This document shows positions 3,252 to 54,725 of a DNA stretch of 64,000 bases, piece after piece (position 1 is the first letter of the stretch; each line of letters begins with the position of its first letter). The notes under the pieces are model-generated. The model was not told where the DNA came from. It saw only the letters and a list, made by a program, of their open reading frames with translations, and searched no databases. The translations under genes and the position numbers were made by a program. This DNA comes from Mesobacillus jeotgali (GTDB taxonomy: Bacteria; Bacillota; Bacilli; Bacillales; Cytobacillaceae): positions 4,148,001 to 4,212,000 of the forward strand of contig NZ_CP109811.1 of the NCBI RefSeq assembly GCF_014856545.2. The letters are read 5' to 3'.

Positions 3252-3362
3252 CGAATTATTGTGAAAAGTGGTCGATATAATTAAAAATCCGCCGATATAT
3301 CGCAAAATGTGGTCGATATAATTAAAAATCCGCCGATATATTGAAAAATGTGGTCGATATAT
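3252..3362. repeat. Periodic intergenic array, family C, copy 1
   Basis: Six CGA(T/A)TA cores begin at 3252, 3273, 3293, 3314, 3334 and 3355, with spacings of 21, 20, 21, 20 and 21 bp. Cores alternate between TGGTCGATATA and CCGCCGATATA contexts, so the full repeat is 41 bp. The array lies between the divergent TPR and NERD genes. The same motifs, on the opposite strand, recur at 44804-44910. Confidence 0.85.
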
Positions 3363-3451
3363 TTCACTAATCGTGAATCTGTACGGTAAAAGAAGGTATT
3401 TTCGGTGATGCAGTCGAATATTACAGTACTAATATTAAGGAGTGATAGCAT

Positions 3452-4423
3452 TTGATTGGGAAAACAAGAGAATACCCTAAAGAGATCATGATTTTAGAAG
3501 CAATAGTAAGACGTTTTCCTCCTGATGACTTCAAAAAAGCAGAATTCGAGAAGAAACTTTACCGAAAACGGGCAGGCTACAAAGGAGAAAAGACACTGGA
3601 TTACTTTTTAGAACAAGTTGACCACTCTGAGATGGTAATTTTGCACGATTTGAGAATTCCGATCAACAGTACTCACTTCCAAATCGACACCCTCATTATT
3701 ACCCCTTATTTTCTCCTCATCATTGATTCCAAAAATTACGCAGGAACACTCATTTTCCTTCCAGAATTCAATCAATTGATCAGAATTCAAAACGATATAG
3801 AAGAAGTTTTTCCCGACCCGATACTCCAGGCTAAAATCCAGGCATCCCAGTTAAAAGCTTTTCTCAAAAAATTTCATATTACACCGCCACCAACTGAATA
3901 TCTAGTTGCAATTAGCAATACACAGGCCCTCATTAAAAATCCAACCAATGACAAGGAAGTCAGTTATAGAGTCTTCAGGTCATCGAATGTCGCTTTCAAA
4001 ATCCCGCCAATTTACAAAAAACATCCCCAGTCACTTCTTTCCAAAAATGACATGAAGAAGATAGCCAGACTTTTAATTAAGGCGCATGAACCGTTGGTAC
4101 CAGACCCGAAGTCTATGAACCTTCCGATTGAGAAAATGGTTAAGGGTGTGCAGTGTGCTTCCTGCGAGACATTCGGTATGGACTACCATCAGGGGAAATG
4201 GACGTGTAAAAGCTGCGGTCAAAAATCTTTGGATGCCCATATTCAAGCCTTGAGAGATTATTTCCTTATTTACGGACCTTCTATTACAAACAAACAATTC
4301 CGGGATTATCTAAAATTAAATTCTTCATCTACCTCAAAAAGACTCTTGTCTTCCATGGATTTGGTGTTTTCCGGCACAAATAAAGGGAGGATCTACTCTC
4401 CGGGAAAAAGCTTCTTTGATTAA
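3452..4423 (+). CDS. NERD domain protein with C-terminal zinc ribbon
   Basis: A 323-residue protein with an N-terminal nuclease-related (NERD) domain: GYKGEKTLDYFL near residue 43 and HFQIDTLIIT...LLIIDSKNYAG near residues 74-98, the region holding the acidic and lysine residues of the fold. A CxxC...CxxC zinc ribbon (CASC and CKSC) follows near residue 231. NERD domains resemble archaeal Holliday-junction resolvase-type nucleases, but activity is unproven. The start is TTG at 3452 after AAGGAGTGATAGCA. The gene is AT-rich compared with its neighbours and sits inside an otherwise conserved block, which hints at acquisition. Confidence 0.8.
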   Translation: MIGKTREYPKEIMILEAIVRRFPPDDFKKAEFEKKLYRKRAGYKGEKTLDYFLEQVDHSEMVILHDLRIPINSTHFQIDTLIITPYFLLIIDSKNYAGTLIFLPEFNQLIRIQNDIEEVFPDPILQAKIQASQLKAFLKKFHITPPPTEYLVAISNTQALIKNPTNDKEVSYRVFRSSNVAFKIPPIYKKHPQSLLSKNDMKKIARLLIKAHEPLVPDPKSMNLPIEKMVKGVQCASCETFGMDYHQGKWTCKSCGQKSLDAHIQALRDYFLIYGPSITNKQFRDYLKLNSSSTSKRLLSSMDLVFSGTNKGRIYSPGKSFFD

Positions 4424-4455
4424 AAGCTATTTTGGCAGCCTAAATGCAAATAAAA

Positions 4456-4484
4456 CCCAGCGCAATCTATTCTCCTGCGCTGGG
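4456..4484. terminator. Bidirectional terminator shared by NERD gene and his operon
   Basis: CCCAGCGCA (4456-4464) pairs with TGCGCTGGG (4476-4484). T-rich runs flank both sides: CTTCTTTCTTTT on plus and TTTTATTTG on minus. Half of the stem lies inside the last codons of hisIE and the loop contains its stop codon, so gene end and terminator overlap. Confidence 0.85.
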
Positions 4485-5150
4485 CTTCTTTCTTTTATTC
4501 AATACTACTAGTACTTCTTTTAGCGGCAGTTTCTGTTCCTGCAGCAAGACCATCAGGTGGTAGAGCAGGTCGGCAGCTTCCCACTTCAACTCTTCGGGAT
4601 CGCGGTTTTTGGCGGCGATGATGACTTCCGATGCTTCTTCACCGACTTTTTTCAAGATCTTGTCGACGCCTTTTTCAAATAGATAGGTGGTGTAGGCGCC
4701 TTCCGGCATGTCCTGTTCGCGCTGGCGGATCGTACTTTCCAGCTCGAGCATGACGGCAAAATCGCCCAGTGAAGCGAGCTGGCCATCGGATCGCTCCAGC
4801 GTGCTTTCCGGTGAATCACCATCATCGGAACGCTCCAGAAGGTTTTCAGAGAAACAGCTGACTGCACCTGTATGGCATGCCGGCCCTGCTGGTTCGACGA
4901 GGACCACAAGGGCGTCCCCGTCACAGTCGTATTTAATCTCGACTATTCTCTGGGTGTTGCCGCTTGTTGTGCCTTTATGCCAGAGCTCCTGGCGGGAACG
5001 GCTGTAAAACCAGGTTTCCCGTGTTTGAAGCGACTTGCCAAGGGATTCTTCATTCATATAGGCAACAGTCAGGACTTCACGTGTCGTTGCATCCTGGACG
5101 ACTGCGGGAATCAGGCCATTAGCATCAAACTTTAATTCTTCAATTTTCAT
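4467..5150 (-). CDS. hisIE: Bifunctional phosphoribosyl-AMP cyclohydrolase / phosphoribosyl-ATP diphosphatase
   Basis: It catalyses steps two and three of histidine synthesis. The HisI domain covers about residues 1-115, with the zinc/magnesium region [16 protein letters not shown] and [10 protein letters not shown]. The HisE domain covers about 130-220, with [14 protein letters not shown]. The linker holds a short duplication, [13 protein letters not shown] then LERSDG, which makes the 227-residue protein longer than the usual 210 or so. Its start overlaps the hisF stop as ATGA. It is the last gene of the operon. Confidence 0.96.
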
Positions 5151-5905
5151 CGTACGGTCACTCCTTTTTCTCGGAGATAGGATTTTACTTCTTTTACAGA
5201 GGTTTCGCGGTAGTGGAAGATCGATGCAGCCAGTGCGGCATCTGCTTTCCCTTCGGTAAAAGCATCAGCAAAATGGTCGGCGTTTCCGGCACCGCCAGAG
5301 GCAATCACCGGGACCGTCACCGCTTCGCTCACAGCACGGGTCAACGCCAGGTCAAAGCCTTTCTTTTCGCCATCACTGTCCATGCTTGTCAGTAGAATTT
5401 CCCCTGCTCCAAGGCGGACAGCCTCTTTTGCCCAGTCAATCACTTCCCAATCTGTCGGCTTCCGCCCGCCATGGGTATAGACACGCCATGATCCGAGCTC
5501 AGGGTCGTACTTTGCATCGATGGCGACGACAATGCACTGGGCGCCAAAGAAATCAGAGCCTTCAGCGATTAATATCGGATTGTTGACAGCTGCGGTGTTC
5601 AAGGATACTTTATCTGCACCTGAACGAAGCATCCTCTTCATATCCTCAAGTGTGTTAATGCCCCCTCCGACTGTGAACGGGATGGCCAGTTCTGACGCTA
5701 CTTCCCTGACCACCTCGACCATTGTCTTCCTTCCTTCAACGGAAGCTGATATATCAAGAAAAACGAGCTCATCGGCTCCTTTCTCATCGTAGAAACGCGC
5801 CAGCTCGACAGGGTCGCCGGCATCGCGGAGCTGCACAAATTGCACTCCTTTTACGACGCGGCCGTCTTTTACATCTAGGCAGGGAATGATCCGTTTGCTT
5901 AGCAT
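5147..5905 (-). CDS. hisF: Imidazole glycerol phosphate synthase, cyclase subunit
   Basis: HisF is the (beta/alpha)8 cyclase that uses ammonia from HisH to make imidazole glycerol phosphate and AICAR. The 252-residue protein has the catalytic aspartate regions [12 protein letters not shown] (residues 9-20) and VVAIDAKYD (near 130), and phosphate-binding VGGGI and ASGGAG loops. Its ATG overlaps the hisA stop as TGATG, which suggests translational coupling. Confidence 0.97.
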
Positions 5906-6636
5906 CAGGACTCCCCCGCTTCCAACGCAGATTTCACCGAGAACCGGCCTTCATAAATGGCTTTGCCGACGATTGCACCGCTGACACCATCTTCACGCAA
6001 CTGTCGAAGGGCTGCCAAATCATCAAGCGAGCTGACCCCTCCTGAAGCGATGACACTTTTGCCCGTTTCCAAAGCAAGCTGGCGGGTTGCCGCGACATTT
6101 GGCCCTGTTAGTGTACCGTCCGTGGCAATGTCGGTAAAAATGAATGTCTCCGCTCCGGCATCGGCGAATCTTTTGCCAAGCTCGACAGCACTTACCTCGG
6201 AAGTGTTCAGCCAGCCATGTGTCGCGACGAAGCCATTTTTCGCGTCAAGGCCAATCGCAATTTTCGCGCCATATTTCCTGACCATTTCCTCAGCGAACTC
6301 CGGATTGGAAACGGCAATGCTGCCAATGATGACTCGGGTGACGCCATTATCAAGATAGTGGTTGATATCATCTTCACTTCGGATGCCGCCGCCAATCTGG
6401 ATGTTCACGCCAAGCTCCTTTGCAGCCTGGATGACAAATTTGTCATTGACCCGCTTGCCGTCCCTTGCGCCATCGAGGTCGACCATATGAATCCACTCTG
6501 CCCCTTCATCAGCGAATTTCTTCGCCATTTCAAAAGGGGAATCTCCATAAACAGTTTCCTTGTCATAATCACCTTGCAGCAGCCGGACACATTTTCCGCC
6601 GCGCATGTCGATCGCCGGGTAGATTGTGAATTTCAT
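5905..6636 (-). CDS. hisA: ProFAR isomerase
   Basis: HisA converts ProFAR to PRFAR by an Amadori rearrangement. The 243-residue barrel has the catalytic aspartates in [14 protein letters not shown] (residue 8 region) and GLDAKNG (near 129) with phosphate loops GGGIRS and ASGGVSS. I start it at 6636 (MKFTIYP), which overlaps the hisH stop as TAATG and has AAAGGAAG upstream. A longer open frame to 6747 runs back into hisH. Confidence 0.96.
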
Positions 6637-7274
6637 TAGTTTGTCTTCCTTTCTGTTGCAAGGTTGGCAAAATTCCGGAGCAGTGCCATTCCCATATCGC
6701 TGCTTTTTTCCGGATGGAATTGCATCCCGAAGATATTGTTCCTGCAAACGATGGCCGGCACTTCAACATCATAATAATCGCCGACTGCCACCAGGACTCC
6801 CGGCTCGTTCGTTTTTACATAATAGGAATGGACAAAGTAAACATAATCTTCTTTAAGTGATGCCACCAATGGCGATTCACCTGTAAAACGAAGCTTGTTC
6901 CAGCCCATATGCGGAACTTTATAGTTTTCCCCTACAGCCGTCTGGCCGGTAAACCGCTCCACTTTTCCAGGCAGCAGGTTCAAGCCCTTCGTCAGGCCAT
7001 TTTCCGTGCTTTCTTCGAACAACAGCTGCATGCCCAGGCAGATTCCGAGCACAGGCTTGCCGGTAGCGGCGAAAGCGTGGATCATTTCCGTCAAACCGGT
7101 ACGGTTCAATACTTCCATTGCATCACGGAATGAACCGACGCCTGGGACAAGCAGTGCATCTGCTTCCATCAAATTGCCCTTATATTGTGAGATAAAGTAT
7201 GGTGCATCCAGCCGTTCGAGCGCTTTGCTTACGCTGAACAGATTGCCCATGCCGTAATCGACGATGCCAATCAT
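6636..7274 (-). CDS. hisH: Imidazole glycerol phosphate synthase, glutaminase subunit
   Basis: HisH releases ammonia from glutamine and channels it to HisF. The 212-residue class I amidotransferase has the nucleophile Cys in [11 protein letters not shown] (near residue 80) and the His/Glu pair in FHPEKS near the C terminus. The start [11 protein letters not shown] is standard. It follows hisB after a 110-bp gap, the largest inside the operon. Confidence 0.96.
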
Positions 7275-7312
7275 GAGTTAACTTCCTTCCTGTACAGATT
7301 GCGTGTTTTCTT

Positions 7313-7372
7313 TCACACCACGGAGGTCACTGCCTCATCCTTCGCTTCAAGTTCAAGGATTTTTCTTGGCAT
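7313..7372 (-). CDS. Possible 19-residue peptide between hisB and hisH
   Basis: Past the hisB stop codon an AAGGA site precedes an ATG at 7372, opening a short frame, MPRKILELEAKDEAVTSVV, that ends with TGA at 7313. Nothing is recognised in it. It could couple translation across the hisB-hisH gap, encode a tiny protein, or be chance. Confidence 0.25.
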   Translation of the reverse strand: MPRKILELEAKDEAVTSVV

Positions 7373-7384
7373 GCTTCTAGTTCC

Positions 7385-7972
7385 TTAAAGCATACCCTTC
7401 GATGAAGGAACGCCTTTAACCCGCGGATCGATGGTCGTCGCTTCATCTAGCGCACGGCCAAGAGCTTTAAATACTGCTTCGATCATGTGGTGAGTATTTT
7501 TTCCGTAATGGACGATGACATGCAGGTTCATTCTTGCCTCGAGCGCCAGTTTCCACAGGAATTCGTGCACTAGCTCGACATCGAAGGTGCCAACCTGCTG
7601 GGCAGGGAATTCTGCGCGCATTTCGAGGTGCGGGCGGTTGCTGAGATCGATGACTACCTGCGCCAGGGCTTCATCCATTGGGACAAAAGCGTTTCCGTAG
7701 CGTTTGATTCCTTTTTTATCGCCGAGTGCATCGCGAAGCGCCTGTCCGATGCAGATGCCGATATCTTCGGTTGTATGATGTCCATCCACCTCAACATCAC
7801 CCTTCGCATCAACTTTCAAGTCAAACTGGCCATGCTTTGCGAATAAATCGAGCATATGGGAAAGAAAAGGCACACCAGTTTCCAGTTCCGTTTTCCCCTC
7901 ACCATCGATGCTAAAATCAAGATCTATCTTTGTTTCATTCGTATATCGATTCACCGTTGCGGTGCGTTCCAT
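7385..7972 (-). CDS. hisB: Imidazoleglycerol-phosphate dehydratase
   Basis: HisB removes water from imidazole glycerol phosphate in a manganese-dependent reaction. The 195-residue protein shows the duplicated metal-binding signatures DGHHTTEDIG (about 63-72) and THHMIEAVFKALG near the C terminus. It is the single-function form without the phosphatase domain of enteric bacteria. The start at 7972 (MERTATVNR) has GGAGGG seven bases upstream. The in-frame ATGs at 7987-7990 overlap that site and are less likely. Confidence 0.96.
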   Translation of the reverse strand: MERTATVNRYTNETKIDLDFSIDGEGKTELETGVPFLSHMLDLFAKHGQFDLKVDAKGDVEVDGHHTTEDIGICIGQALRDALGDKKGIKRYGNAFVPMDEALAQVVIDLSNRPHLEMRAEFPAQQVGTFDVELVHEFLWKLALEARMNLHVIVHYGKNTHHMIEAVFKALGRALDEATTIDPRVKGVPSSKGML

Positions 7973-7992
7973 GAGCGTTCCCTCCATCATAA

Positions 7993-9258
7993 CTATTTTA
8001 GTCTTGCCTCCACGGCCCGGGCGTGGGCTTCCAGGCCTTCAAGCCTGGCGAACTGAGCAATCTTTGCACCATTGTCATTCATTGCTTTTTCGCTGTAAAG
8101 GATGATGCTTGATTTCTTTTGGAAATCCTCGACACTCAACGGGCTTGAAAAACGCGCTGTCCCATTCGTAGGCAGGACATGGTTCGGTCCGGCAAAATAA
8201 TCACCTACAGGCTCTGAGCTGTATCTCCCAAGGAAAATCGCGCCAGCGTGCTTTATTTTCCCCAAAAGCTCCATCGGATTGTCCGTGACGATTTCCAGAT
8301 GCTCTGGTGCAAGCTGGTTGATGGCGCTGACTGCTTCTTCCATATCAGCGGCCACATAAATTGCCCCGAAGTTTTCGATAGCCTGTGTGGCGATCTCTTT
8401 TCTCGGCAGTTGCGAAAGCTGCTTATACACTTCATTTTGTACGTCTTCAGCTAGAGTACGCGATGTTGTCACTAAAACCGCACATGCCCGAGGATCATGC
8501 TCGGCCTGGGAAAGCAAATCGGCCGCAATTTCATTGGCCCGCGCTGTTTCATCAGCCAGGATGCCAATTTCGCTTGGTCCGGCGATCATGTCAATCGCGA
8601 CGTCTCCGAAAACCTCACGCTTGGCGAGGGCGACATAGATGTTTCCTGGCCCTGTGATTTTATCGACCGGCTTGATCGATTCAGTGCCGTATGCCAGTGC
8701 AGCAATCGCCTGTGCTCCACCGACTTTATAGATTTCTTTTACCCCGGCAATATCTGCGGCAACGAGCACGCCTGCTGGAAGCTTTCCGTCCTGTCCTGGC
8801 GGTGATACCATCACGATCCGCTCAACACCGGCGGTTTTTGCCGGAATGACATTCATTAAGACCGATGAAGGATAAGCGGCTGTCCCGCCAGGCACATACA
8901 CACCGACAGAATCAAGCGGTGTCACCTTCTGGCCAAGCATCGTGCCATTTTCTTCTGTCGTCATCCAAGAAGGGCGCAGCTGTTTTTCATGGTATTTACG
9001 TATATTGTCAGCTGCCTCTGTGATGATGTCCACGAGCTCGCTGCTGATCGTTTTATAAGCATCTGAGATTTCCTCATCCGTCACCAGGAAATCATTGAGC
9101 GCCACTCTATCAAATTTTTCGGTAAAAGTCCTGAGCGCCTGATCACCTGAAGCGCGGACTTCCGCGATTATATTCTGTACGGCTTTTCGCTGCTCTTCCG
9201 TTCCGCCATCAACGGTTCGTTTGAGTGACAGACTTCCATCTATCTGTAAAATTTCCAT
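7993..9258 (-). CDS. hisD: Histidinol dehydrogenase
   Basis: HisD oxidises histidinol to histidine in two NAD-dependent steps, using zinc. The protein carries the family signature around [15 protein letters not shown] (middle third) and [24 protein letters not shown] in the C-terminal third. I start it at the ATG at 9258 (MEILQIDG), which fits homologue length at 421 residues. AAAGGA lies about 12 bases upstream. An in-frame GTG at 9285 is possible, with a poorer ribosome binding site. Confidence 0.95.
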
Positions 9259-9288
9259 GGGAGAATCAAATCCTTTCAGATTCACAAT

Positions 9289-11084: not shown

Positions 11085-11174
11085 TGTTTCCACCCTCTTC
11101 GTTGCTGGTGTTATCTATCTTAATTATCTAAATCCTTTAGTTCGCTAATATGGTAACAAGATGAAGTTATATGT

Positions 11175-11203: not shown

Positions 11204-11423
11204 CCTTAAGCTGTTCATGTTCTGCTTTTTAAAATAGAGCTGGAAGTCGGCGACCAGATCACGGACCTGATAGCCGCAGAAAGATCCGTTTTAAGGGCTG
11301 TTCCTTCCGTGAAGCACACGAGTTTGCTGACAAAACCATCAATTGTTATTGGAAATTTCATATGAATAGGCAATAAATTTTAAGATTGACTATTGCTGGC
11401 CGCCCATTTTAGCTGGATGAGAC

Positions 11424-11535
11424 TTTTATTGGCGAAAAAATTTTTTATTGGCGATTTTCAAATTTTATTGGCGATAATTTGATTTTATTGGCGATTTTCA
11501 CAACTTTATTGGCGAAAATCAATTTTTATTGGCGA
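11424..11535. repeat. Periodic intergenic array, family A
   Basis: Six copies of TTTTATTGGCGA (one with CTTTATTGGCGA) end at 11435, 11454, 11474, 11494, 11515 and 11535, so the spacing is 19-21 bp. The bases between cores are A/T-rich and differ. The array sits in the 590-bp gap between the his promoter and the yvoF terminator. The rest of the gap, 11210-11400, holds a short stretch open on both strands that I could not identify. Confidence 0.85.
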
Positions 11536-11642
11536 CTTGGAAATTTTCGCTGATTTTTTCCAGTTCATGAACTCAAGCGCACCCGTTTTTTCATCGCAGG
11601 CCACAATTCGATATAGTCAGGATCAACTATGAAAAAATGCAA

Positions 11643-11676
11643 AAAAGCGAAGCGGAGTAGAATCCGTTTCGCTTTT
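11643..11676 (-). terminator. Terminator of the lgt-yvoF gene cluster
   Basis: AAAAGCGAA-GCGGA pairs with TCCG-TTTCGCTTTT around GTAGAA. On the minus strand TTTTTTGCATTTTTTC follows. It lies just past the yvoF stop codon at 11679. Confidence 0.85.
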
Positions 11677-11678
11677 AG

Positions 11679-12212
11679 TTAGTTGTTTGTCCCATAAATT
11701 TCATCATTTGCCCAGCGTTGTGCCAGTTCTTCCTTTGTGTAGATCACACGCATCGGGTTGCCGCCGACAAAGGCTCCGGCCGGGACGTCTTTGTGGACTA
11801 GTGTTCCGGCGGAGACGATGGCGCCGTCCCCGATCCTGATGCCGGGCATGATGGTGGAATTGGCGCCAATCATGACTTCGCTGCCAATCTCAACATCGCC
11901 GAGGCGGTATTCCTTAATCAAGTATTCATGTGCCAGGATGGTCGTGTTATAGCCAATGACCGTATTGCGGCCAACGGAGATTTTTTCCGGGAACATGACG
12001 TCGAGCATGACCATCAGCGCAAAGGAGGTCTGGTCGCCGACCTTCATCCGCAGAAATGTACGGTACAGCCAGTTTTTTATACCGAGGAACGGCGTATATC
12101 GTGCCACCTGGATGACGGCGAAATTTTTGACGACCTTCCAGAACGGGACGGTTTTATAAACATGCCAGAGTGAGTTTGCTCCTTCTACTCGATAACGAGT
12201 CGTCCTTCTCAT
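11679..12212 (-). CDS. yvoF: Left-handed beta-helix acyltransferase YvoF
   Basis: A 177-residue protein of the hexapeptide-repeat acetyltransferase family. The C-terminal half shows the repeated [LIV]GxxxxI pattern, such as IGSEVMIGANSTIMPGIRIG, and ends with the typical GGNPMRVIYT. The acceptor is unknown. I start it at the ATG at 12212 with GGGGTGTAGA before it, matching B. subtilis YvoF. An in-frame TTG at 12224 falls inside ppaX. It closes the yvoD-ppaX-yvoF cluster. Confidence 0.9.
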   Translation of the reverse strand: MRRTTRYRVEGANSLWHVYKTVPFWKVVKNFAVIQVARYTPFLGIKNWLYRTFLRMKVGDQTSFALMVMLDVMFPEKISVGRNTVIGYNTTILAHEYLIKEYRLGDVEIGSEVMIGANSTIMPGIRIGDGAIVSAGTLVHKDVPAGAFVGGNPMRVIYTKEELAQRWANDEIYGTNN

Positions 12213-12213
12213 T

Positions 12214-12858
12214 CTACACCCCAAGGATTGGCAGGATATCAGCCATGTTTTCCAGAATGTAGTCTGGCTTGTATTCCTCTAGATGCTCTCTTCCTTTTAT
12301 GGACCAGGCAACTCCAGCCGTTTTTGTGCCGGCGTTTTTGCCGCCGAGGATATCATGATGGTTATCACCGACCATGATCGCACGGTCCGGTGAGGATCCA
12401 AGCATGTCCAATGCTTTTAAAAGCGGCTCGGGATCGGGCTTCGCTTTTTCAACATGGTCAAGTGCGACGACCACCTCGAAAAACTCGTCCAAACCTGTCA
12501 GCTTCAAGCCCATTTGAACTACATCAGATCGCTTAGTCGTGACGATTCCCATATGGAAGCCGTTTTCCTTCAGCGTCCTGACCGTTTCATACACTCCCTC
12601 GAAACCTTTTACCAGCAGGTCGTGGTTTGCCAGGTTGTAAGTCCGGTAGGTTGTGATCATTTCCTCGTAGCCTTCTGGATCCAGCTTCTCGAATGATTCC
12701 TTTAAAGATGGCCCAAGAAACGGAAGGACATCCTCCCGTTTGTATTGGCCGGGATAATAGGTTTCCATTGTATGGAGAAAAGATGAAATAATCAGTTCGT
12801 TTGTATCAATCAAAGTCCCGTCAAGATCGAACAGGACTGTATCTATTTTATTGCTCAT
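12214..12858 (-). CDS. ppaX: Pyrophosphatase PpaX, HAD family
   Basis: PpaX hydrolyses the pyrophosphate released when HPr(Ser-P) is dephosphorylated by HprK; the hprK gene is in the same cluster. The 214-residue HAD hydrolase has the nucleophile motif DLDGTLID (residues 11-18), the motif II threonine in GIVTTKR (near 107), the lysine KAKPDPEP and the acidic pair VGDNHHD (near 170). It overlaps yvoD by 11 bp. Confidence 0.93.
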
Positions 12859-21518: not shown

Positions 21519-21755
21519 CCTCTTCAACTCCTTAGAAATTAATACGCTCGGGAGTCATGGAAGTTTCATTTCTTTATGAAATTAGTTCGACAAATTGCGA
21601 TGTAACCCTTGTTTATCTTCAATTCTAGGTGGTGAAAGTTATGTGAATGTTTTTCGTAGGGGATTTCCTTTTGATTTTCGTCGTTTTATAGGATTTTCGA
21701 GTGATATTGATTAAATTCACCTGGCTGGAAAATTTATTCTCTTACTCATAACCCT

Positions 21756-21848
21756 TAATTGCATCTAGAATCATCATAATTGCACAAAGATAGGTGATAA
21801 TTGCACGCTTGCAGGCTGTAATTGCACGGAAATCATGAATAATTGCAC
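21756..21848. repeat. Periodic intergenic array, family B, copy 1
   Basis: Five cores TAATTGCAC (the first TAATTGCAT) start at 21756, 21777, 21798, 21819 and 21840, an exact 21-bp period. The 12 bp between cores are unrelated to one another. A weaker run of TTTTCG at 21651, 21675 and 21694 lies next to it. The array lies about 40 bp beyond the uvrA terminator. The same core and the same exact period recur at 54654-54725. Confidence 0.92.
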
Positions 21849-40632: not shown

Positions 40633-40815
40633 AACCGGAAAAATTCCGCTTAAATTTGAAACGACCCTTGTTTTCTTAAAAATAAGGGTCGTTTTTCCGG
40701 TTATTTAATCCAAATCGTTCGATTTTGTTATATTTATATTAGTTAGCCGGAATATCTCCGCTTATTTCAGCTTCATAAGCGTATTTATATACAATAGCCG
40801 GAAATTCTCCGCTTA
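40633..40815. repeat. Dispersed intergenic repeat, family D
   Basis: Three related 20-mers occur on the plus strand: AACCGGAAAAATTCCGCTTA (40633), AGCCGGAATATCTCCGCTTA (40745) and AGCCGGAAATTCTCCGCTTA (40796). The last two are 51 bp apart. A partial reverse copy (TTTTTCCGGTTATTT) is near 40693. The block fills the gap between the oxidase remnant and the next terminator. Confidence 0.75.
40661..40695 (+). terminator. Terminator downstream of the multicopper oxidase remnant
   Basis: ACGACCCTT (from 40661) pairs with AAGGGTCGT around a 14-base loop, followed by TTTTT on plus. Confidence 0.8.
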
Positions 40816-44713: not shown

Positions 44714-44803
44714 GCTATTTAACTAAGGTTTCATTGATATAGTACTATTATCTCGCTTCTTTTTTTCGGTAAAGTTGGTTTTTTTTGCGTAAATCAGATT
44801 TTA

Positions 44804-44910
44804 TCGACCACATTTTTGAATATATCGGCGGATTTTCGAACATATCGACCACTTTTTCGAATATATCGGCGGATTTTTAATTATATCGACCACATTTCCG
44901 AATATATCGA
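44804..44910. repeat. Periodic intergenic array, family C, copy 2
   Basis: Six TATCG cores have their TCG at 44804, 44825, 44845, 44866, 44886 and 44907, with spacings of 21, 20, 21, 20 and 21 bp. Contexts alternate TATCGACCAC and TATCGGCGGATTTT, except that the last two are both of the first type. It lies between two convergent terminators. It is the reverse-strand counterpart of 3252-3362. Confidence 0.9.
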
Positions 44911-44944
44911 CCAAGTGAATCAAACACACATGCATAGAGTAAAA

Positions 44945-46249: not shown

Positions 46250-46497
46250 GTTGAAGCGTTGAAGAGAGTCTATTAAGCCGGTCTCCCTGTTAATAGAGAA
46301 TCAGTGGTTGGTGGAAACTGATACAAAGGCCTGGTGAATTTCGTTCTTGGAGCTTTTCCTTTTTTTAAAAAAAAGGAACGGTTGTGGCCGTTATCCAGTA
46401 ACTTGAGCGGGAAGCAGCATGCTTCCAAATAGGGTGGTACCGCGTGTTCAGCCACGTCCCTATCCAGATTGATGGATGGAGGCGTGGCTTTTTATTT
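46250..46497 (+). promoter_or_regulatory. T-box leader, predicted tRNA-Phe specificity
   Basis: The T-box sequence AGGGTGGTACCGCG is at 46431-46444. Upstream is a Stem I with the GAAGAGAG loop-E side (46261), the distal loop GTGGAAACTG (46311) and a specifier loop in GAATTTCG before TTGGAGC. TTC at 46340-46342, followed by a purine, is the best specifier, so uncharged tRNA-Phe is the likely ligand. A terminator with stem AGCCACG/CGTGGCT (46450-46489) and T run ends the leader. Confidence 0.88.
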
Positions 46498-47887: not shown

Positions 47888-47891
47888 TTGG

Positions 47892-47920
47892 AAGCTGACA
47901 ATACGTCAGCTTCTTTTTTT
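47892..47920 (+). terminator. Terminator of the NSS transporter gene
   Basis: GAAGCTGAC (47892-47900) pairs with GTCAGCTTC (47906-47914), followed by a T run. Confidence 0.9.
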
Positions 47921-48006
47921 CATACAATCACAGAAACTATCATCAGTATAATTTTTCCCTTTAATGCAAAACCTTTTGTGTAGGTGATTGCATCGGAGGG
48001 ATTTTG

Positions 48007-49512
48007 ATGTTCTTTAAGAAAAAGAAAGCAGAAGCCGACAACAGCAGCAAGAATCAAAAAAACCTCGACGAAAAGGAATTAATCCCTGTAGATAAGGCCG
48101 AATTTATTCAAAAAATCAAGGAATGCCTTCATGATAGTGCGGATTTAAATATTAAGGAACTCCAAAATGGCTTTACACTGATTTTCTTGGACACATTGAC
48201 GGATAAGAAGATGCTGAATGGAGACGTTCTCGCTCGTCTTGAAGATGCGCAAGCTTCCCCAAACGAGGCGCTTAAGCATATTACAGTATCCAGTACTTCC
48301 AAACATAAATATGTCGAAGATGTGGTTGATTCGATTTTACATGGAGCAGTGGTGGTCCATTCGCAAGGCCACCCTGTCATCATCAGCGCATTGGTTGGTA
48401 CCCAGGAAAACCGGTCCTTGACCCGGCCGGAAAATGAATCACAGGTTTTGGGGCCTCAAATCGCCTTTAACGAGAGTCTTGCAACCAATATATCTCTTAT
48501 CCGCCGATTTCTTACAAATCCAAATTTATGCAATGAGAGCTTTTCTTTAGGAAAACAAACGAATTCAGCGATTTCGCTTCTCTATTTAAAGGGAATTGCG
48601 GACGATGATATGATCGATCGGATGCGTGAGCGGATCAAATCAATCGACATTGACGGGATCCTTGACAGCTCAATTCTGGTACAGCTGATTGAAGACAATT
48701 CATTTGCCATTTTTCCGCAGCTGCTGCTGACAGAAAGACCGGATCGTGCCTGCGCCTGGCTCTTGAATGGAAAAATGGTGGTCCTTGTTGATGGCAGTGT
48801 GCAGGTTATCGGTGCACCGCAAACATTCATCGAGTTTTTCCAGAGTATGGAAGATGAAAGTGTTAGATGGCAAATCGCGACATTTCTCAGAGTCTTAAGG
48901 GTGTTCTCCATGGTTGTTTCGATTTTTTTCACGGCAATCTATGTGGCAGCTCTGACATTCCATTATGAAATTATCCCGCAAACCCTGCTGATCCCGCTTG
49001 GTGAGTCGAGGTCACGTGTACCCTTCCCGCCCATAATCGAGGCATTATTGCTGGAAACGATGATTGAACTCTTGCGGGAAGCCGGAGCCCGGCTGCCAAC
49101 AAAAGTCGGCCAGACGATGGGTATCGTTGGCGGTATCGTCGTCGGGACTGCTGCCGTAGAAGCTGGATTCACAAGCAACATCCTGATCATCATCATCGCC
49201 GTTAGTGCACTCGCTTCGTTTACAACGCCAAACTATATGATGGGCAATGTTATTAGAGTCTTGCGTTTCCCATTAATCATACTTGCAGGATTCTGGGGAT
49301 TTTACGGATTGATGGTTGGCTTTTGCTTCCTGCTGATCCATCTGCTCCGCCTATCCAGTCTGGGAACACCGTTTTTGGCGCCTTTTTATCCGCCGAGAAT
49401 TGAAGATTGGCGAGACAGCATCATACGCCTGCCTATCGGATGGACAAACAACAGACCGTTGCAGACTAGGCCAATGGACAGATTGAAGTATCAGAAACGA
49501 AAAACCAAATAA
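48007..49512 (+). CDS. Spore germination protein, GerA/GerKA family
   Basis: The A subunit of a Ger-type nutrient receptor in the spore inner membrane. The 501-residue protein has a hydrophilic N-terminal domain (about 1-290) and a C-terminal membrane domain of five or so segments. The family motifs are DGSVQVIGAPQTFIEFFQSMED (near 260) and PFPPIIEALLLETMIELLREAGARLP (near 340-365). I start it at ATG 48007, six bases past GGAGGG. It is first in a three-gene A-B-C operon. The germinant cannot be read from the sequence. Confidence 0.93.
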   Translation: MFFKKKKAEADNSSKNQKNLDEKELIPVDKAEFIQKIKECLHDSADLNIKELQNGFTLIFLDTLTDKKMLNGDVLARLEDAQASPNEALKHITVSSTSKHKYVEDVVDSILHGAVVVHSQGHPVIISALVGTQENRSLTRPENESQVLGPQIAFNESLATNISLIRRFLTNPNLCNESFSLGKQTNSAISLLYLKGIADDDMIDRMRERIKSIDIDGILDSSILVQLIEDNSFAIFPQLLLTERPDRACAWLLNGKMVVLVDGSVQVIGAPQTFIEFFQSMEDESVRWQIATFLRVLRVFSMVVSIFFTAIYVAALTFHYEIIPQTLLIPLGESRSRVPFPPIIEALLLETMIELLREAGARLPTKVGQTMGIVGGIVVGTAAVEAGFTSNILIIIIAVSALASFTTPNYMMGNVIRVLRFPLIILAGFWGFYGLMVGFCFLLIHLLRLSSLGTPFLAPFYPPRIEDWRDSIIRLPIGWTNNRPLQTRPMDRLKYQKRKTK

Positions 49513-49530
49513 TAAGTTGTGGTGTTATAA

Positions 49531-50649
49531 ATGAAAGTTCACATCGAGCCTAAGCCTCAAAACATGGTCAATACATTCCTGCTTATCTTCGTGATTCATT
49601 CTATGCAGGTGGGCGTTGGCATCCAGGGCTTCCAGCGGATCATCTATATGGAAGCAAGGCATGATGCCTGGATTTCCGTCATTCTTAGCGGGATTGCCAC
49701 TGCCATCATAGGGTTCATTATGGTAAAAACATTAAGTTTATATGAGAATTCTGATATATATGGAATCCAATATGATGTGCTTGGAAAGTGGCTCGGCAAC
49801 CTGATTAATATCTTGTTTGTCATCTATTTTCTTGGAGGCTTCCATATTATCGTTCGGAATTATGTCGAAGTTCTGCAGGCATGGGTTTTCCCTGAAGTCC
49901 CGAACTGGCTGATTGCTCTGACTCTCGTATACCTTGTTTACTATGGCTTGAATGGCGGGCTGCGGACAGTTGTGGGTGTCAGCTTTTTTAGCGTTATCCT
50001 ATCTTTGTGGCTGATAATGCTGCTCGCCTACCCCTTCCAGTTCACTAACTGGGATTACTTATTTCCGATGTTTGAAGCGAAGATAACTGAAATACTAAGA
50101 GGGGCAAAGCAAATGACATTCACGGTCATCGGCTTTGAGATCATTTACGTTATCTATCCCTTTTTAAAAGAAAAAGACAGGGTCCATAAATATATGCAAT
50201 ATGGTCTTGGGTTCACGACTATCCTGTATCTTGCGCTCATGGTCGTCTCCCTGGCCTATTTCAGCGGCGGCCAGCTGGAACGGACAATTTGGGGTACGCT
50301 TTCCCTTTTTAAAATCGTTCGCTTTCCCTTTATTGAACGCTTTGAATACGTGGCAATCACTTTTTGGGTCTTGCTGATCCTGCCAAACCTGATGCTCTAT
50401 ATGTGGGCAGCCACTCGGGGAATCTCAAGGATTTTCAATAAAAAAGAACAAAAAGTAAGCTGGGTTCTCTTACTATTCATTTTCCTGACCCTGCTTTATC
50501 CGCTCAGCAGAGTGCAGATTAATCTATTTAACGATTATTTCGCGAGGGGTGCTCTCTATATTGTTTTTGCCTATCCATTACTCCTGTTCGGCGTTGTTCT
50601 GATCAAGAAGAAATTATTCGGTAAAAAGGATGAAGCCAATGCGCAATAA
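49531..50649 (+). CDS. Spore germination permease, GerB/GerKB family
   Basis: The B subunit of the receptor, a 372-residue APC-fold membrane protein with ten predicted segments, for example FLLIFVIHSMQVGVGIQGFQRII in the first segment. GerB subunits bind the germinant amino acid in the family's known members. It follows the A gene by 18 bp and overlaps the C gene. Confidence 0.92.
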   Translation: MKVHIEPKPQNMVNTFLLIFVIHSMQVGVGIQGFQRIIYMEARHDAWISVILSGIATAIIGFIMVKTLSLYENSDIYGIQYDVLGKWLGNLINILFVIYFLGGFHIIVRNYVEVLQAWVFPEVPNWLIALTLVYLVYYGLNGGLRTVVGVSFFSVILSLWLIMLLAYPFQFTNWDYLFPMFEAKITEILRGAKQMTFTVIGFEIIYVIYPFLKEKDRVHKYMQYGLGFTTILYLALMVVSLAYFSGGQLERTIWGTLSLFKIVRFPFIERFEYVAITFWVLLILPNLMLYMWAATRGISRIFNKKEQKVSWVLLLFIFLTLLYPLSRVQINLFNDYFARGALYIVFAYPLLLFGVVLIKKKLFGKKDEANAQ

Positions 50650-51763
50650 AATCCATAAGCTCATGATTGTAATCCTTGTGATTCTCCTTTCTGGCTGCGC
50701 TGAAGAGAAAACTCTGGAGAAAATGGGTTTGCTCACCACAGTGGGCTATGATCTTACAGAGGATAAGCAGATTCTAGCGACAATGGTTCTTCTCCAAATC
50801 GACCCGGAGGCTCCGCAAAGTTCTGTCATCCTGACGGCAAAATCGGCAACAAGTAAAGGTGCGAGAAATGAGGCAGATTTGAAAAGCCCTAAAAGGCTGC
50901 AGTCAGGGCAGCTGAGGGTAGCACTTTTCAGTGAAGAAGTTGTTCGTACAGGTCTTATCAATCTGGCAGATACACTCGCACGCGATCCATCGATTAGTGA
51001 TCTTACCTATCTCGCGGTAGTTGAGGGAAGCACCAATAAGCTACTTAACCAAAAAAATGAACAATTTTCCGATATCAGCCAGCTCATTTATAAGGAATTG
51101 GATCAAAACATAAAAGGTGAAAAAATCCCATCCTCCACCCTGCAGGAAGTATTGCATGATTTCTATGCACCAGGAATTGATCCCATCCTGCCAACTTTAA
51201 AAGGTGATAATGGCATCGTTAAAATTTCCGGGATGGCTCTAATAAAGAATGATAAAATGGTTGGCAAAATCACCCCAAAAGAAGCCTTTTATTTAAAATT
51301 GGTTAATGACCGCTACGAGGCAGGAGCCATAGAGCTTGAAATTGACAAAAAAGATTTTGATCTGCCCGAGTCTACTGAATCGCCCGTCAAACTCGCAGTA
51401 GTTCTTGACACAATCCATAGCAAAAGTGACATCAACCTGATCAGCAAAGAAAACCTGCAATTCGAACTGAATGTCAAATTACAAACAAGACTGCTTGAAG
51501 TCAATCAGGCACTGGACTTAAAAAACCCCAAAGAGCTTTTGCTGCTCGAAACCAAGCTAAAAGAAAAAATTACCTCAGATATTGAAAAATTGATCAAAAA
51601 AGCACGGGAATCAGGGGCAGATCCATTCGGGTTTGGAGAGATCTATCGAAAAAGTGTCAGACAGGCCAACTTGACCACCGAGAAATGGCATGGCATGTAC
51701 CCGGAAAGCAAAGTCGATGTGAAGATCGAGTTTGAGATTATGAGGACTGGAGTCGTGGAATAA
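50639..51763 (+). CDS. Spore germination lipoprotein, GerC/GerKC family
   Basis: The C subunit, a 374-residue lipoprotein anchored outside the spore inner membrane. The signal peptide ends in the lipobox LLSGC (Cys near residue 20), which needs Lgt. The GER-family start KTLEKMGLLTTVGYDLT follows. The ATG at 50639 has AAGG nine bases upstream; the ATG at 50630 abuts that site. It overlaps the B gene by 11 bp. Confidence 0.92.
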   Translation: MRNKIHKLMIVILVILLSGCAEEKTLEKMGLLTTVGYDLTEDKQILATMVLLQIDPEAPQSSVILTAKSATSKGARNEADLKSPKRLQSGQLRVALFSEEVVRTGLINLADTLARDPSISDLTYLAVVEGSTNKLLNQKNEQFSDISQLIYKELDQNIKGEKIPSSTLQEVLHDFYAPGIDPILPTLKGDNGIVKISGMALIKNDKMVGKITPKEAFYLKLVNDRYEAGAIELEIDKKDFDLPESTESPVKLAVVLDTIHSKSDINLISKENLQFELNVKLQTRLLEVNQALDLKNPKELLLLETKLKEKITSDIEKLIKKARESGADPFGFGEIYRKSVRQANLTTEKWHGMYPESKVDVKIEFEIMRTGVVE

Positions 51764-51774
51764 AAGAAAAAAGC

Positions 51775-51800
51775 GGGAGCCCCGGTTTAGTGGTGCTCCC
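51775..51800 (-). terminator. Hairpin between the germination operon and the GGDEF gene
   Basis: GGGAGC pairs with GCTCCC. The minus strand continues GCTTTTTTCTTTT, so it mainly terminates the GGDEF gene; on plus the T run is weak. Confidence 0.75.
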
Positions 51801-51841
51801 ACTTTGTTAATCAGAACCCGATAGAGGGGGATAAGCTACTT

Positions 51842-52870
51842 CTAAATCATTGTAACTCTATTCCGCCCTTCATGCTTTGATTGATACAATCCTCTGTCCG
51901 CCCGGCTTATTAATGTATCGACTGAGTCACCCGCTCTAAACTCAGTCACCCCAAAACTTACTGTCTGTCTGCCAGCTGTTTTAAAATGGTATTCACTGAT
52001 TTTTAAACGAAGTTCTTCAGCCAGCTTCAGTGCATTTTCACCGGATTGAGAGGAAATGATAATAAACTCTTCCCCTCCCCAGCGGCCAAATTGTTCATTA
52101 GGTGTCAGATTTTGTTTCACAAGTACAGCTAATTCCTTAAGGACCGAATCCCCAACTTTATGTCCGTATGTATCATTAACAGCCTTAAAATGATCAATGT
52201 CGAAAAATAATATAGATACTGGTGCTTCCTTTGTTCCCGACACTTTTTCATCCAGCCAGATGTCGATTTGATGACGGTTGGCTGTTCCTGTCAATGCATC
52301 AGTAAAAGCATTCTCTTTCATATTTTCAAAGTCTGAAAAAAGCTTAATTAATAACCGTGAGTAATAAATAATCAGGATGTAAAAAAGATAGGCTACATAA
52401 AACTGAATAACCGATATTAAATAATCCTCTGACATCTCAGGAAAATTCATTAAACCCATAACAAAGATGACCAAAAATACAGATAGGGAGAAGACAAGCC
52501 CCCGCCTAGCTCCGAGAATAAGAAAAAAGCTGAGAATCACAGCAGGAACCCACATAACTGTAACTCCAAATGCACCAGCTTTATCAGTGGCAATATAATT
52601 AAAAAAGCCATCGTATACTGTTCCTATATGCATAGCAGAAATGATTATTAATGTACCATACTCCACAAGAGGCATGAGCCTTTTGTGATATAACAGTATT
52701 AAACTGATGGTAAACCAGCAAGTCAGAACTACTGTAAGTATTAAATATTTCCCATGCCCTGGCTGGTTGAATACGAAAAGCATGTAAGAGATCATAGCCA
52801 GCAGACTGGGAATAATCATACTTAGATAGACAGTACGTTTAAAGTCCTTCAGAGAGCCCAATTTCTCCAT
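51842..52870 (-). CDS. Membrane-bound diguanylate cyclase
   Basis: It should make c-di-GMP from two GTP. The 342-residue protein has about six membrane segments (1-180) and a GGDEF domain (about 185-342) with DALTGTANRHQID at its start, FFDIDHFKAVNDTYGHKVGD and the active-site loop GRWGGEEF. No RxxD inhibitory site precedes the loop, so product inhibition of the usual kind seems absent. It stands alone; the sensory input is unknown. Confidence 0.92.
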   Translation of the reverse strand: MEKLGSLKDFKRTVYLSMIIPSLLAMISYMLFVFNQPGHGKYLILTVVLTCWFTISLILLYHKRLMPLVEYGTLIIISAMHIGTVYDGFFNYIATDKAGAFGVTVMWVPAVILSFFLILGARRGLVFSLSVFLVIFVMGLMNFPEMSEDYLISVIQFYVAYLFYILIIYYSRLLIKLFSDFENMKENAFTDALTGTANRHQIDIWLDEKVSGTKEAPVSILFFDIDHFKAVNDTYGHKVGDSVLKELAVLVKQNLTPNEQFGRWGGEEFIIISSQSGENALKLAEELRLKISEYHFKTAGRQTVSFGVTEFRAGDSVDTLISRADRGLYQSKHEGRNRVTMI

Positions 52871-53091
52871 TGTGTTTTCTCCTTTATGTCAAAAGAGACC
52901 AATCAATCACCTGATTAGTCCCATTATACCTGGAATCAGTAACTGGCTGACGCAGCCTTGGCCGGCCTAAGTTCCTTTAGTTTTGAGGCTTCATTTTAAA
53001 AAAATTTGCCGCAATATCCAATTTTAATTATACTCAATTTTCAACTGATAACTGAAGATAGTTTATATATAAGGAATAATCTATAAAAATA

Positions 53092-53126
53092 GAAAGTCCT
53101 TCGAGACATTATCTCCAAGGACTTTC
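53092..53126 (-). terminator. Terminator of minJ
   Basis: GAAAGTCCTT (53092-53101) pairs with AAGGACTTTC (53117-53126). The minus strand continues TATTTTTATAG. Confidence 0.85.
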
Positions 53127-53168
53127 CAGCACGCCAATTAAATTTAATAAGCTTTCAAAGAAACAAAA

Positions 53169-54382
53169 TTAAACAACGGCACTGTCCCACTTCTTTTCAC
53201 CCTGGACAAAAAGGATGCCAAGTTCGTGGTGATCGCCTTCATACAAAGCCCTCTGCACGAAGCGGATTTGCCCGTTCGTATCAAGGACTTCAAGCTTGCA
53301 ATGCGCCCTGTTTCGCGACAGAGCTTCATAGAAGGTTTGTTCATCATGGACATTCGTGCCGTTGACCTTTGTGACAAGCTCGCCTACACCAAGAGCCATT
53401 TTATCGGCCGGGGATTCAGGAAGGACTCCGAGAATCATCACACCATGGTTCTTTTTCGAAAATAAAACGGCCTGCTTTCTTCCTGCATCCTTTGCATGAG
53501 CGTCAAGGCTTCGCGTCCAATCATGGCAATCGCAACAGCTACAATGGAAGCGATTGGGTACCAGTATCCCGCTGCAGCAATCAGCGTGATCAGGATACCG
53601 AGCCCAACGACGCGGCTGCCCAATTGACTGACAGCTTCTTTTGGCAGCATGCTCTGGATTTGCTGATGTAAACCGATCGCAAATGGAACGAGGATCAGTG
53701 AATATGTATTGTCGCCGAGTGCGAACACAGGCCACCATTCGAACGGCAGCGTCAGAATTTCGCCCGGAATGAGCATGAATGCCGGAACAACCCATAGTCG
53801 CTTTACCTCGTGGACACCAACCGTCTGGCCGCGCTTGCTCTTGATCAATTTAGGAGAAGTTCCCTTTTTTCCATTTCGTAAAATAAGGAAGCCTTCGCCA
53901 ATCGTTAATAATGCTAACAAAATCGCAATCGATGGAAAGATTTTTTCATCAAGGCTTGAAAATAAGTCGCCTGCTAAAGGGAGATCGATTTGCCTTCCTG
54001 ACAGGAAAATCAATGCGAAAAACGCTGCCCCGACTGTAAATGCAGGAGCAAGCAGTCTGACCCTTGTTGTCAGACTCAATAGCAGTGTTGCTGCAGATAC
54101 TAAAACGATTGCTGCGAATGGAATCGCGATCCCCGCGGCAATGGTTATGATCGAAATGGCGAGCCCGACCAGCAATCCCAGCGGAAACAGCTGCCTGAGC
54201 TCAAAATAAGCATCCTTCGCCCTTACCGTAAAGTTTTTCCGCTCCCGCTTCACGCGCGAAACACCCAGGACAGCCGCCAAAAATAAAGAATAATAGAACA
54301 CAGGGTGAAGCAGAAGCCTGCCCATCCCTTTCAAAAGTTCAATGAACCAATCCTGTGCCACCCCTATGTCACCAGCCTTCAT
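53169..54382 (-). pseudogene. minJ: MinJ-like cell-division topology protein, frameshifted
   Basis: MinJ links DivIVA to MinCD at division septa and poles in B. subtilis. The N-terminal frame (54382-53438) gives a membrane domain of about eight segments starting DWFIELLKGMGRLLLHP. The C-terminal PDZ domain (SKKNHGVMILGVLPESPADKMALG) is in another frame, ending at 53169. One extra A in the A5 run near 53457 would join them as ...FRKKNHGVMILG. ATG 54382 lacks a clear ribosome site; GTG 54361 is an alternative start. Its position upstream of ctpB agrees with B. subtilis. Confidence 0.8.
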
Positions 54383-54653
54383 AAATTACATGATATTAAG
54401 CTTATTCTATCAAATCTGGGTGGTAAAACCTATCAATAGTTGAGGAAACTTGATGGGATTTTTTTCTTGTGGAGCTGTTTTAGGGCTGAATCTTGGGATG
54501 GGGTCAGGAATTTGAATAATTATAGGCAGATCTAAGTGTCACTTCGGCAGTCAAGGTACTTCCAAGTATGAAATTCACCCAATTTTGAAGTGAATCCAGA
54601 GGGTTTCATTAAAAAAAGGTCGCTGGAAAAATTATTCTGTAGGTTCAACTCAA

Positions 54654-54725
54654 TAATTGCACGTTCAGCTTTAATAATTGCACTGACATTAGCCATAATT
54701 GCACACTCAGACACATTAATTGCAC
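54654..54725. repeat. Periodic intergenic array, family B, copy 2
   Basis: Four perfect TAATTGCAC cores start at 54654, 54675, 54696 and 54717, an exact 21-bp period. The spacers differ from each other and from those of copy 1 at 21756-21848. The array lies about 25 bp beyond the ctpB terminator, in the same relation to the ended gene as copy 1 has to uvrA. Confidence 0.92.

What the first reader, a model, noticed from the sequence alone, without database searches (positions are those of the whole stretch)
3252..54725. Unrelated intergenic core families share one 20-21 bp period
Five gaps (3252-3362, 11424-11535, 21756-21848, 44804-44910, 54654-54725) hold 4-6 copies of a short core at a 19-21 bp step, close to two turns of B-DNA, while the bases between cores vary. 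A sixth gap (40633-40815) holds related 20-mers with looser spacing. Cores on one helix face suggest phased protein binding, curvature or a copying mechanism. Most arrays lie just beyond a terminator, in DNA unlikely to be transcribed. Parts of the families look alike (ATTGGCGATTTTCAAA in A and ATCGGCGGATTTTCGAA in C), so they may descend from one element. I know of no described function.
Basis: partly seen in the sequence, partly recalled or inferred. Interest (0 to 1): 0.78.

Follow-up and report, generated by a model that had tools for sequence, protein, structure and literature searches.

The report
Helix-phased repeat arrays at gene ends
Short DNA words repeated every two turns of the helix sit between many genes of this Bacillus relative, and evolution protects both the word and the spacing, so they probably line up a DNA-binding protein that has not been identified.

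Summary
All five gaps carry 4-6 copies of a core at 19-21 bp steps; they are three families, not five (AC: 3252, 44804; N: 21756, 54654; B: 11424). The sixth gap fits a second class with a 51-52 bp step. The class is published: Subirana and Messeguer 2021 (PMC8161180) catalogued constant-length 20-21 and 52 nt repeats in Bacillus, probably including this genus, function unknown. New here: (1) arrays are discrete modules, dispersed with unrelated flanks; several families with different cores share a TTTTTCCA(G) tail, in B/D/E half of a dyad with half-site centres 21 bp apart. (2) In 13 ortholog pairs cores change 2.4%, spacers 9.8%, flanks 11.5%; small indels are about six-fold rarer inside arrays. 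(3) At four of six orthologous sites compared, congeneric species hold different words at the same pitch, partly through loss from stacked modules. (4) No array folds better as RNA than its shuffles, and most dyad changes break the pairing. Best reading: phased binding arrays for a sequence-specific DNA-binding protein, usually past terminators. The protein is unknown; its role (boundary or anchor) is inferred. Class known; anatomy and constraint apparently new.

The parts
3248..3363 (-). AC-family array (TATCGACCAC / TATCGGCGGA alternating; steps 21,20,21,20), between divergent genes
11425..11567 (+). B module: six TATTGGCGA cores plus terminal dyad; matches to it elsewhere in the genus mostly stop at the same right end and begin at the same left end or one unit later
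11536..11564 (+). terminal dyad of the B module (CTTGGAAATT-N8-TTTTTTCCAGT), half-site centres about 21 bp apart
11643..11678 (-). terminator-like hairpin of the gene 11679-12224 (-), between that gene and the B module
21725..21741 (-). CTGGAAAATTTATTCTC, the shared tail (TTTTCCAG on the - strand) of the N module
   Evidence: sequence
21756..21848 (+). N-family array: four TAATTGCAC at step 21 plus one degenerate copy (TAATTGCAT)
40635..40815 (+). three copies of CCGGAA-N4-TCCGCTTA at 40635, 40747 and 40798; the last two are 51 bp apart; assigned, tentatively, to the 52 bp class
44802..44913 (+). AC-family array, six units (21,20,21,20,21), between convergent genes with a terminator-like hairpin on both sides
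54623..54639 (-). CTGGAAAAATTATTCTG, the shared tail (- strand) of the second N module
   Evidence: sequence
54654..54725 (+). N-family array, four TAATTGCAC at step 21

Best explanation
Each array is a cis-acting DNA element: a row of near-identical short sites, two helix turns apart (20-21 bp), that a sequence-specific DNA-binding protein, or a family of paralogous proteins, occupies along one face of the helix. A common end site (TTTTTCCA(G); in B, D and E one half of a CTGGAAA dyad with half-site centres 21 bp apart) marks most modules and may nucleate assembly. SHOWN: modular anatomy, fixed pitch, free spacers, conserved core and conserved spacing between orthologs, dispersed module copies, and an intergenic position usually past a terminator. 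The word at a site changes between species, at least in part because modules are copied to new places, stack in the same gap and are lost one by one.
For: Constraint: in 13 close ortholog pairs substitutions are 11/460 in cores, 50/512 in spacers and 340/2952 in flanks (core v flank p about 1e-11; spacer v flank p 0.29), and indels of at most 12 bp number 2 in 1016 bp of array against 36 in 3013 bp of flank (p 0.002); the only other array indels are whole units of 20 and 21 (p-values treat positions as independent). A multiple-alignment count on 7 ortholog sets gives the same order: 5.9%, 27.3%, 22.4%. Shared tail: 92 of 127 arrays of 9 families against about 1.1 in shuffles; other side or strand 7, 5 and 11. 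Dyad: N8 in 100 of 104 unique dyads; over its eight pairs 54 changes break pairing, 17 give G-U and 7 are compensated (3.45 expected by independence). No RNA fold: z from -1.5 to +1.6 for 5 arrays on both strands. Pitch differs by family: D 20.00, B 20.34, E 20.52, AC 20.67, and 21.00 in N2, F, G, H, I, J; N is 21 in the own genome. Mean step falls with AT content across 11 families (Spearman -0.63, p 0.04) and within B (-0.49, 43 arrays, p 0.0007), as helix phase rather than a fixed ruler would predict. Terminator between gene and array on 22 of 33 sides. Site replacement.
Against: No protein has been identified; no binding, ChIP or expression data exist. Ortholog pairs were picked because both sides hold the same family, which favours conserved cores; decayed arrays exist (D site of L082 in G005, G006, G019). 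One site (E) is empty in most species where I could read it, so no single array is indispensable. Pairs and arrays are not independent. The pitch trend is not significant against A-tract content across families (-0.39, p 0.23), family J is A-tract-rich with step 21 (one array), and the N mean (20.34) is contaminated by unrelated hits. The seven compensated dyad changes all fall on one pair and slightly exceed chance. Several different words in one genome require several proteins or a loose reader. The tail is rare in AC (4 of 17) and absent in H (0 of 3). One of six sites kept the same word in 9 of 9 genomes read (L082 B site).
Confidence: 0.6

Rival explanations
1. A purely selfish miniature element: the cores and the dyad are binding sites of a transposase or recombinase supplied in trans, and intergenic sites are merely where insertion does little harm.
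For: Modules are discrete (similarity between loci begins at the first core and stops about 30 bp after the last), dispersed and mostly flank-independent, e.g. window 11425 v G000:489293 at 90% over 144 bp; presence or absence varies between species (E site); modules stack (G018, G013 and G007).
Against: Orthologous copies keep core and spacing while spacers drift; a dead selfish copy would lose all parts alike. No inverted pair joins the two ends in three modules checked. One Y1 transposase-like gene in the genome, with no array core or CTGGAAA in its 3.3 kb locus. No plasmid match; the viral pattern hits have mean steps of 18, 19 or 21-22, none of 20.
Confidence: 0.2
2. An RNA element: arrays are transcribed and act as small RNAs, sponges or 3' end structures (suggested by Subirana and Messeguer).
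For: 52 nt arrays of B. coagulans are reported as transcribed (PMC8625621, passages only). Among tandem gene pairs the right-hand end, with cores written as here, faces the upstream gene in 16 of 22 (p 0.05), but only 12 of 18 (p 0.24) without N, whose tail is at the other end. A small excess of compensated changes at one dyad pair.
Against: Fold energies no better than shuffles; dyad changes mostly break pairing; no Rfam match to any array of the window (gathering threshold); mostly beyond terminators; a strict two-turn pitch has no obvious meaning for single-stranded RNA.
Confidence: 0.08
3. Topoisomerase (gyrase) or curvature sites: phased AT-rich DNA that wraps or bends and takes up supercoils at gene ends, like BIME-gyrase sites in enterobacteria (recalled).
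For: Position between transcription units, usually past a terminator; module length of about 110-150 bp; pitch near two turns.
Against: Identical words within an array are not needed for bending; A-tract content differs greatly between families. Only 6 of 32 arrays lie between convergent genes.
Confidence: 0.08
4. Neutral satellites: slippage makes tandem repeats, and apparent core conservation is a by-product.
For: Whole-unit gains and losses occur (indels of 20 and 21); a long homogenised D array in G011 (773719-774065).
Against: Spacers have diverged to the flank level while cores and spacing have not; two step sizes dominate.
Confidence: 0.04

Closest known systems
20-21 nt constant-length tandem repeats of Bacillus (Subirana and Messeguer 2021, PMC8161180; first report J. 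Bacteriol. 2020, JB.00229-20, not held)
   Same: Non-coding arrays of at least 4 repeats, 20-21 nt (some 40-41), several families of different sequence per genome, a short conserved signal in the repeats, coexistence with 52 nt arrays. Their Table 4 lists B. selenatarsenatis with 30 arrays of 20-21 nt and 49 of 51-53 nt.
   Different: In what I read of that paper (parts 1-3 of 5 of the text, tables and legends, and a term search that found 0 of terminator, hairpin, palindrom-, intergenic, orthologous, origin of replication) there is no shared tail or dyad, no placement relative to terminators, no core v spacer rates and no word replacement at orthologous sites.
REP / BIME elements with RAYT transposases (recalled; listings)
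   Same: Short, intergenic, many copies, often at gene ends, modular.
   Different: Units are direct repeats, no REP-type tag seen on reading, and the single Y1_Tnp gene is not near arrays.
BOX elements and other MITE-like repeats (recalled)
   Same: Modular, variable number of inner units, dispersed copies.
   Different: No terminal inverted repeats in three modules checked; inner units keep only the core and the pitch.
Plasmid iterons and partition centromeres (recalled)
   Same: Direct repeats about two helix turns apart read by a DNA-binding protein.
   Different: Many chromosomal loci; of ten genes beside window arrays that were scanned, nine have a Pfam family and none is a rep or par family.
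CRISPR arrays (recalled)
   Same: Constant and variable stretches alternate.
   Different: Unit 20-21 bp in all; spacers drift in orthologs at the flank rate instead of being replaced; many loci per genome.

Membership tests
20-21 nt constant-length tandem repeats of Bacillus | at least 4 repeats, most with the same length of 20-21 (+/-1) nt | tested here: met
   5 of 5 window arrays of the class
20-21 nt constant-length tandem repeats of Bacillus | several families with the same length and different sequence in one genome | tested here: met
   N, AC, B, D in the own genome; E
[quoted passage not shown]
   31 of 32 own arrays overlap no ORF of 110 aa or more (crude ORF caller); steps of 20 are not multiples of three
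20-21 nt constant-length tandem repeats of Bacillus | species-specific sequences | tested here: inconclusive
   D arrays in 18 of 21 genomes of the genus and 0 of 40 outside it; TAATTGCAC arrays recur under titles of several Bacillaceae genera, some of them possibly coding
52 nt constant-length repeats of Bacillus (sixth gap) | repeat of 51-53 nt, at least 4 repeats | tested here: inconclusive
   only three copies, two of them 51 bp apart; full 52 bp arrays exist elsewhere in this genome
REP/RAYT | short palindromes with a cognate Y1 transposase gene beside members | tested here: not met
   one Y1_Tnp; no array core or CTGGAAA in its 3.3 kb locus
structured RNA element | fold more stable than shuffles, or covarying stem | tested here: not met
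   54 breaking and 17 G-U changes against 7 compensated (3.45 expected), the 7 all at one pair
MITE | terminal inverted repeats and target duplication | tested here: inconclusive
   no inverted pair between the two ends in three modules; target duplications not tested
CRISPR | cas genes and foreign-derived spacers | not tested
   no cas search was run; spacer drift argues against

The most novel reading that the evidence does not exclude
A genome-wide address system: one conserved factor reads the constant CTGGAAA / TTTTTCCAG end site and builds on it a helix-phased filament whose word is supplied by interchangeable array modules; modules with different words compete for the same gene-end sites, mostly in the origin-proximal half of the chromosome (22 of 26 own arrays of families B, AC and N), so the chromosome's anchoring points stay put while their recognition words turn over.
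Probability: 0.22. Interest if true: 0.82.

Novelty: new member of a known kind. Interest (0 to 1): 0.6.

Why it matters
Constant-length, variable-sequence satellites have been an enigma in Bacillus since 2020-21. If the anatomy shown here is right, they are not mere satellites but phased binding arrays under selection, most of them with a constant end site. That constant site and the two-turn pitch give a direct biochemical handle (bait DNA, half-turn insertions) on an abundant, unidentified DNA-binding system of a large group of bacteria.

Tried and rejected
Curvature as the common function: rejected because A-tract content differs between families. RNA structure: disfavoured. RAYT/REP: one Y1_Tnp gene with no arrays near it. 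Phage or plasmid origin: no plasmid match (one B module as query); the 29 viral hits for D are 45 or 49-51 bases long, i.e. mean steps of 19 or 21-22, none of 20, and the two for B have step 18; 18 and 21 would fit coding repeats, but I did not translate them. RacA-like origin anchoring: one literature search (listing only); no sequence test made, a lead only. Segregation of the 52 bp class to the terminus: suspected from the first sample, then dropped, because one search shows one 52 bp family all round the chromosome.

Counts mended: a first dyad count counted registers up to three times and was replaced; the compensation figure (22 against 23.2) included a ninth position that is not a pair, and was replaced (7 against 3.45). 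The orientation figure (16 of 22) mixes in N, whose tail lies at the other end; without N it is 12 of 18. The N value mixes in unrelated hits.

Rows dropped: one search lists arrays with at least 3 exact cores, or 2 at step 20/21 for B, AC and N, that have a gene on both sides; weaker ones are not in it. One search uses 28 of those 32 arrays (4 have no gene reading in) and 33 of 34 sides (one at more than 350 bp dropped). One search uses 13 hand-picked pairs at two sites. One search uses 19 own B and D modules with at least 3 exact cores. At site C two species hold a long insert (G009, G019) and were not used in the rates. One search read 16 of 21 genomes. One search gave 55 stretches, 33 of them with Bacillaceae-type titles or on a contig of this genus (L061); 22 others were not followed beyond those printed.
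Full report
1. THE OBSERVATION. Allowing the gap to float over more than ten values, the whole genome (4.84 Mb, one contig) returned TAATTGCAC pairs only at step 21 (11 of 11), TATCGRCSR pairs only at 20 or 21 (15 of 15) and TATTGGCGA pairs at 20 or 21 in 48 of 49, with no match to the reversed patterns. The five gaps are three families: AC (3252 and 44804, opposite strands), N (21756 and 54654) and B (11424). In the sixth gap two of the three copies are 51 bp apart. In 400 kb taken evenly from the genome, arrays at 52/53 bp are the commonest (13 loci with at least 4 copies; one search shows the class), 20/21 gave 1, every other bin 0, and shuffles 0. With at least 3 copies the figures are 15, 2 (one doubtful) and 0-2. 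A 324 kb sample of 20 other genomes of the order gave 3 at 20/21 and none at 52/53 with at least 4 copies. So two pitches exist here, about two and about five helix turns, and the sixth gap fits the second.

2. ANATOMY. Sampling round the arrays revealed further families in the same genome: D (TATAGCGA; all 136 single steps read are 20) and E (TATTCGCAA). B, D and E arrays end in the same 29 bp dyad, ACTGGAAATT-N8-TTTTTTCCAGT. Among 104 unique dyads the gap is 8 in 100, so the half-site centres lie 21 bp apart. Over its eight pairs 754 cells are consensus, 54 broken, 17 G-U and 7 compensated (3.45 expected by independence; all 7 at the second pair). Four inner pairs hardly vary and say nothing. 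The motif TTTTCCA follows the last core within 70 bp in 92 of 127 arrays of nine families (B 43/47, D 27/39, E 4/5, F 5/5, G 3/4, N read in reverse 5/5, N2 read in reverse 1/2, AC 4/17, H 0/3) against about 1.1 in shuffles; counts on the other side or strand are 7, 5 and 11. These arrays include orthologs and paralogs and are not independent. An exact search for the dyad (CTGGAAATT-N6-9-TTTTTTCCAG) hit 7 of 7 genomes of the genus that were drawn and 0 of 242 others of the order. Among 19 own B and D modules, similarity between loci starts at the first core (median 0; 5-95%: -19 to +24) and stops about 30 bp after the last (median 30; 5-95%: -6 to +71; 116 alignments of at least 100 bp). The flanks are otherwise unrelated, except that L086/L091 extends 77 bp to the left and 85 to the right, and L089/L091 51 bp to the left. 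Matches to the window's B module at many other places in the genus mostly stop at the same right end and begin at the same left end or one unit later (capped list).

3. POSITION. Of 32 own arrays, 31 overlap no sizeable ORF; 22 lie between tandem genes, 6 between convergent and 4 between divergent genes. Of 33 gene sides reading into an array, 22 have a terminator-like hairpin before it, against 6 of 33 shuffled (p 0.0001). An orientation bias is not established: with cores written as here the right end faces the upstream gene in 16 of 22 tandem cases (p 0.05), but in 12 of 18 without N (p 0.24). With the origin near 0 and the terminus near 2.5 Mb by GC skew, 22 of 26 own arrays of families B, AC and N lie in the origin-proximal half (p 0.0003). 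D arrays in four relatives give 15/19, 16/19, 12/13 and 3/6, from the places listed and assuming that those records start at the origin.

4. CONSTRAINT. In 13 hand-picked close ortholog pairs at two sites, cores differ at 11 of 460 positions, spacers at 50 of 512 and the rest of the intergenic gap at 340 of 2952; indels of up to 12 bp number 2 in 1016 bp of array and 36 in 3013 bp outside. Spacers thus drift like their surroundings, but their length does not. A multiple-alignment count over seven ortholog sets gives the same order for core against the rest (5.9%, 27.3%, 22.4%), with the bias that core columns were chosen by conservation. The mean pitch is 20.0 in D, 20.3 in B, 20.5 in E, 20.7 in AC and 21.0 in N2, F, G, H, I and J. 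Across families it falls with AT content (-0.63, p 0.04, n 11), not significantly with A-tract content (-0.39, p 0.23; J is a counter-example), and within B with both (-0.49 and -0.53, n 43). This is what constant helix phase rather than constant length would give, but relatedness is not removed.

5. TURNOVER. Six orthologous gaps were compared; at four the word differs between species while the pitch stays. At the window's B site (16 of 21 genomes read): B in G000, G003, G009, G005, G019 and G013; AC in G018, G004, G007, G017, G016, G014, G011, G020 and G001; nothing in G012. At the 54654 site: TAATTGCAC, AATTGCCC, AATCACTACG or WTCTCTACG by clade. At the 44804 site: AC in most, TAATCTCCC in G003 and G004, TTATTCCCCGTTG in G002. 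At the D site of L082: D, B, or both. G018 at 54654 and G013 and G007 at the D site carry two modules in a row, and relatives carry one or the other, so replacement can be loss from stacks. The B site of L082 kept B in 9 of 9 genomes read, with 2-6 units. The E site is filled in seven genomes and empty in others, including near relatives.

6. WHAT IT IS. Free spacers, a fixed core, a fixed two-turn pitch and no RNA fold (z from -1.5 to +1.6) point to a protein read-out on double-stranded DNA. The protein is not known, and that step is inference. Placement past terminators suggests a boundary or anchor between transcription units, which is a further inference.

7. PRIOR ART. Subirana and Messeguer 2021 (PMC8161180; read: text parts 1-3 of 5, figures and tables, one term search) describe constant 20-21 and 51-53 nt repeats in 176 Bacillus genomes (781 and 1886 of 4029 arrays), species-specific families, a short conserved signal, and the two-turn remark; they propose a polymerising protein or small RNAs. 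Table 4 counts 30 and 49 such arrays in B. selenatarsenatis. Their transcription paper (PMC8625621) was seen in passages only. The 2020 paper is not held. Five searches aimed at this class or at intergenic repeats, seen as listings, showed no functional study of the class. So the phenomenon is known; the module anatomy, constraint and site turnover are, as far as those searches and that reading go, new.

Noticed in passing
L203-L222 (own genome, 400 kb sample), e.g. L213:12493-13146, L215:6313-6870: Abundant 52 bp arrays, several with inverted arms in each unit (e.g. GACAGSTTT ... AAASCTGTC); arms of one unit are often not complementary at the sixth base, which argues against RNA hairpins. Several begin just after a terminator-like stretch (read by eye).
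   Followed up: partly
window 11230-11400: Relic of the 3' end of a gene that by its motif looks like a HAD hydrolase (recalled motif, no search) and stands upstream of the array in many relatives; the window species and G018 have lost most of it.
   Followed up: no
G011:C1:773719-774065: Long D array (about 18 units) with two alternating spacer types, a 40 bp higher-order repeat.
   Followed up: no
window 46250-46464 (+) and 52935-53020 (-): T-box leader and c-di-GMP-I riboswitch (Rfam).
   Followed up: no
   Followed up: no
L021, L028, L043, L044, L056, L070 and others: TAATTGCAC arrays at 20-21 bp steps, without a long open frame, under titles of other Bacillaceae genera: the same word recurs across genera, which suggests a conserved reader or exchange. 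L025, L038 and L055 have long open frames over the array and may be coding.
   Followed up: partly
G000:C1:4307853-4308179: The only Y1 transposase-like match of the genome; no array core near it.
   Followed up: partly
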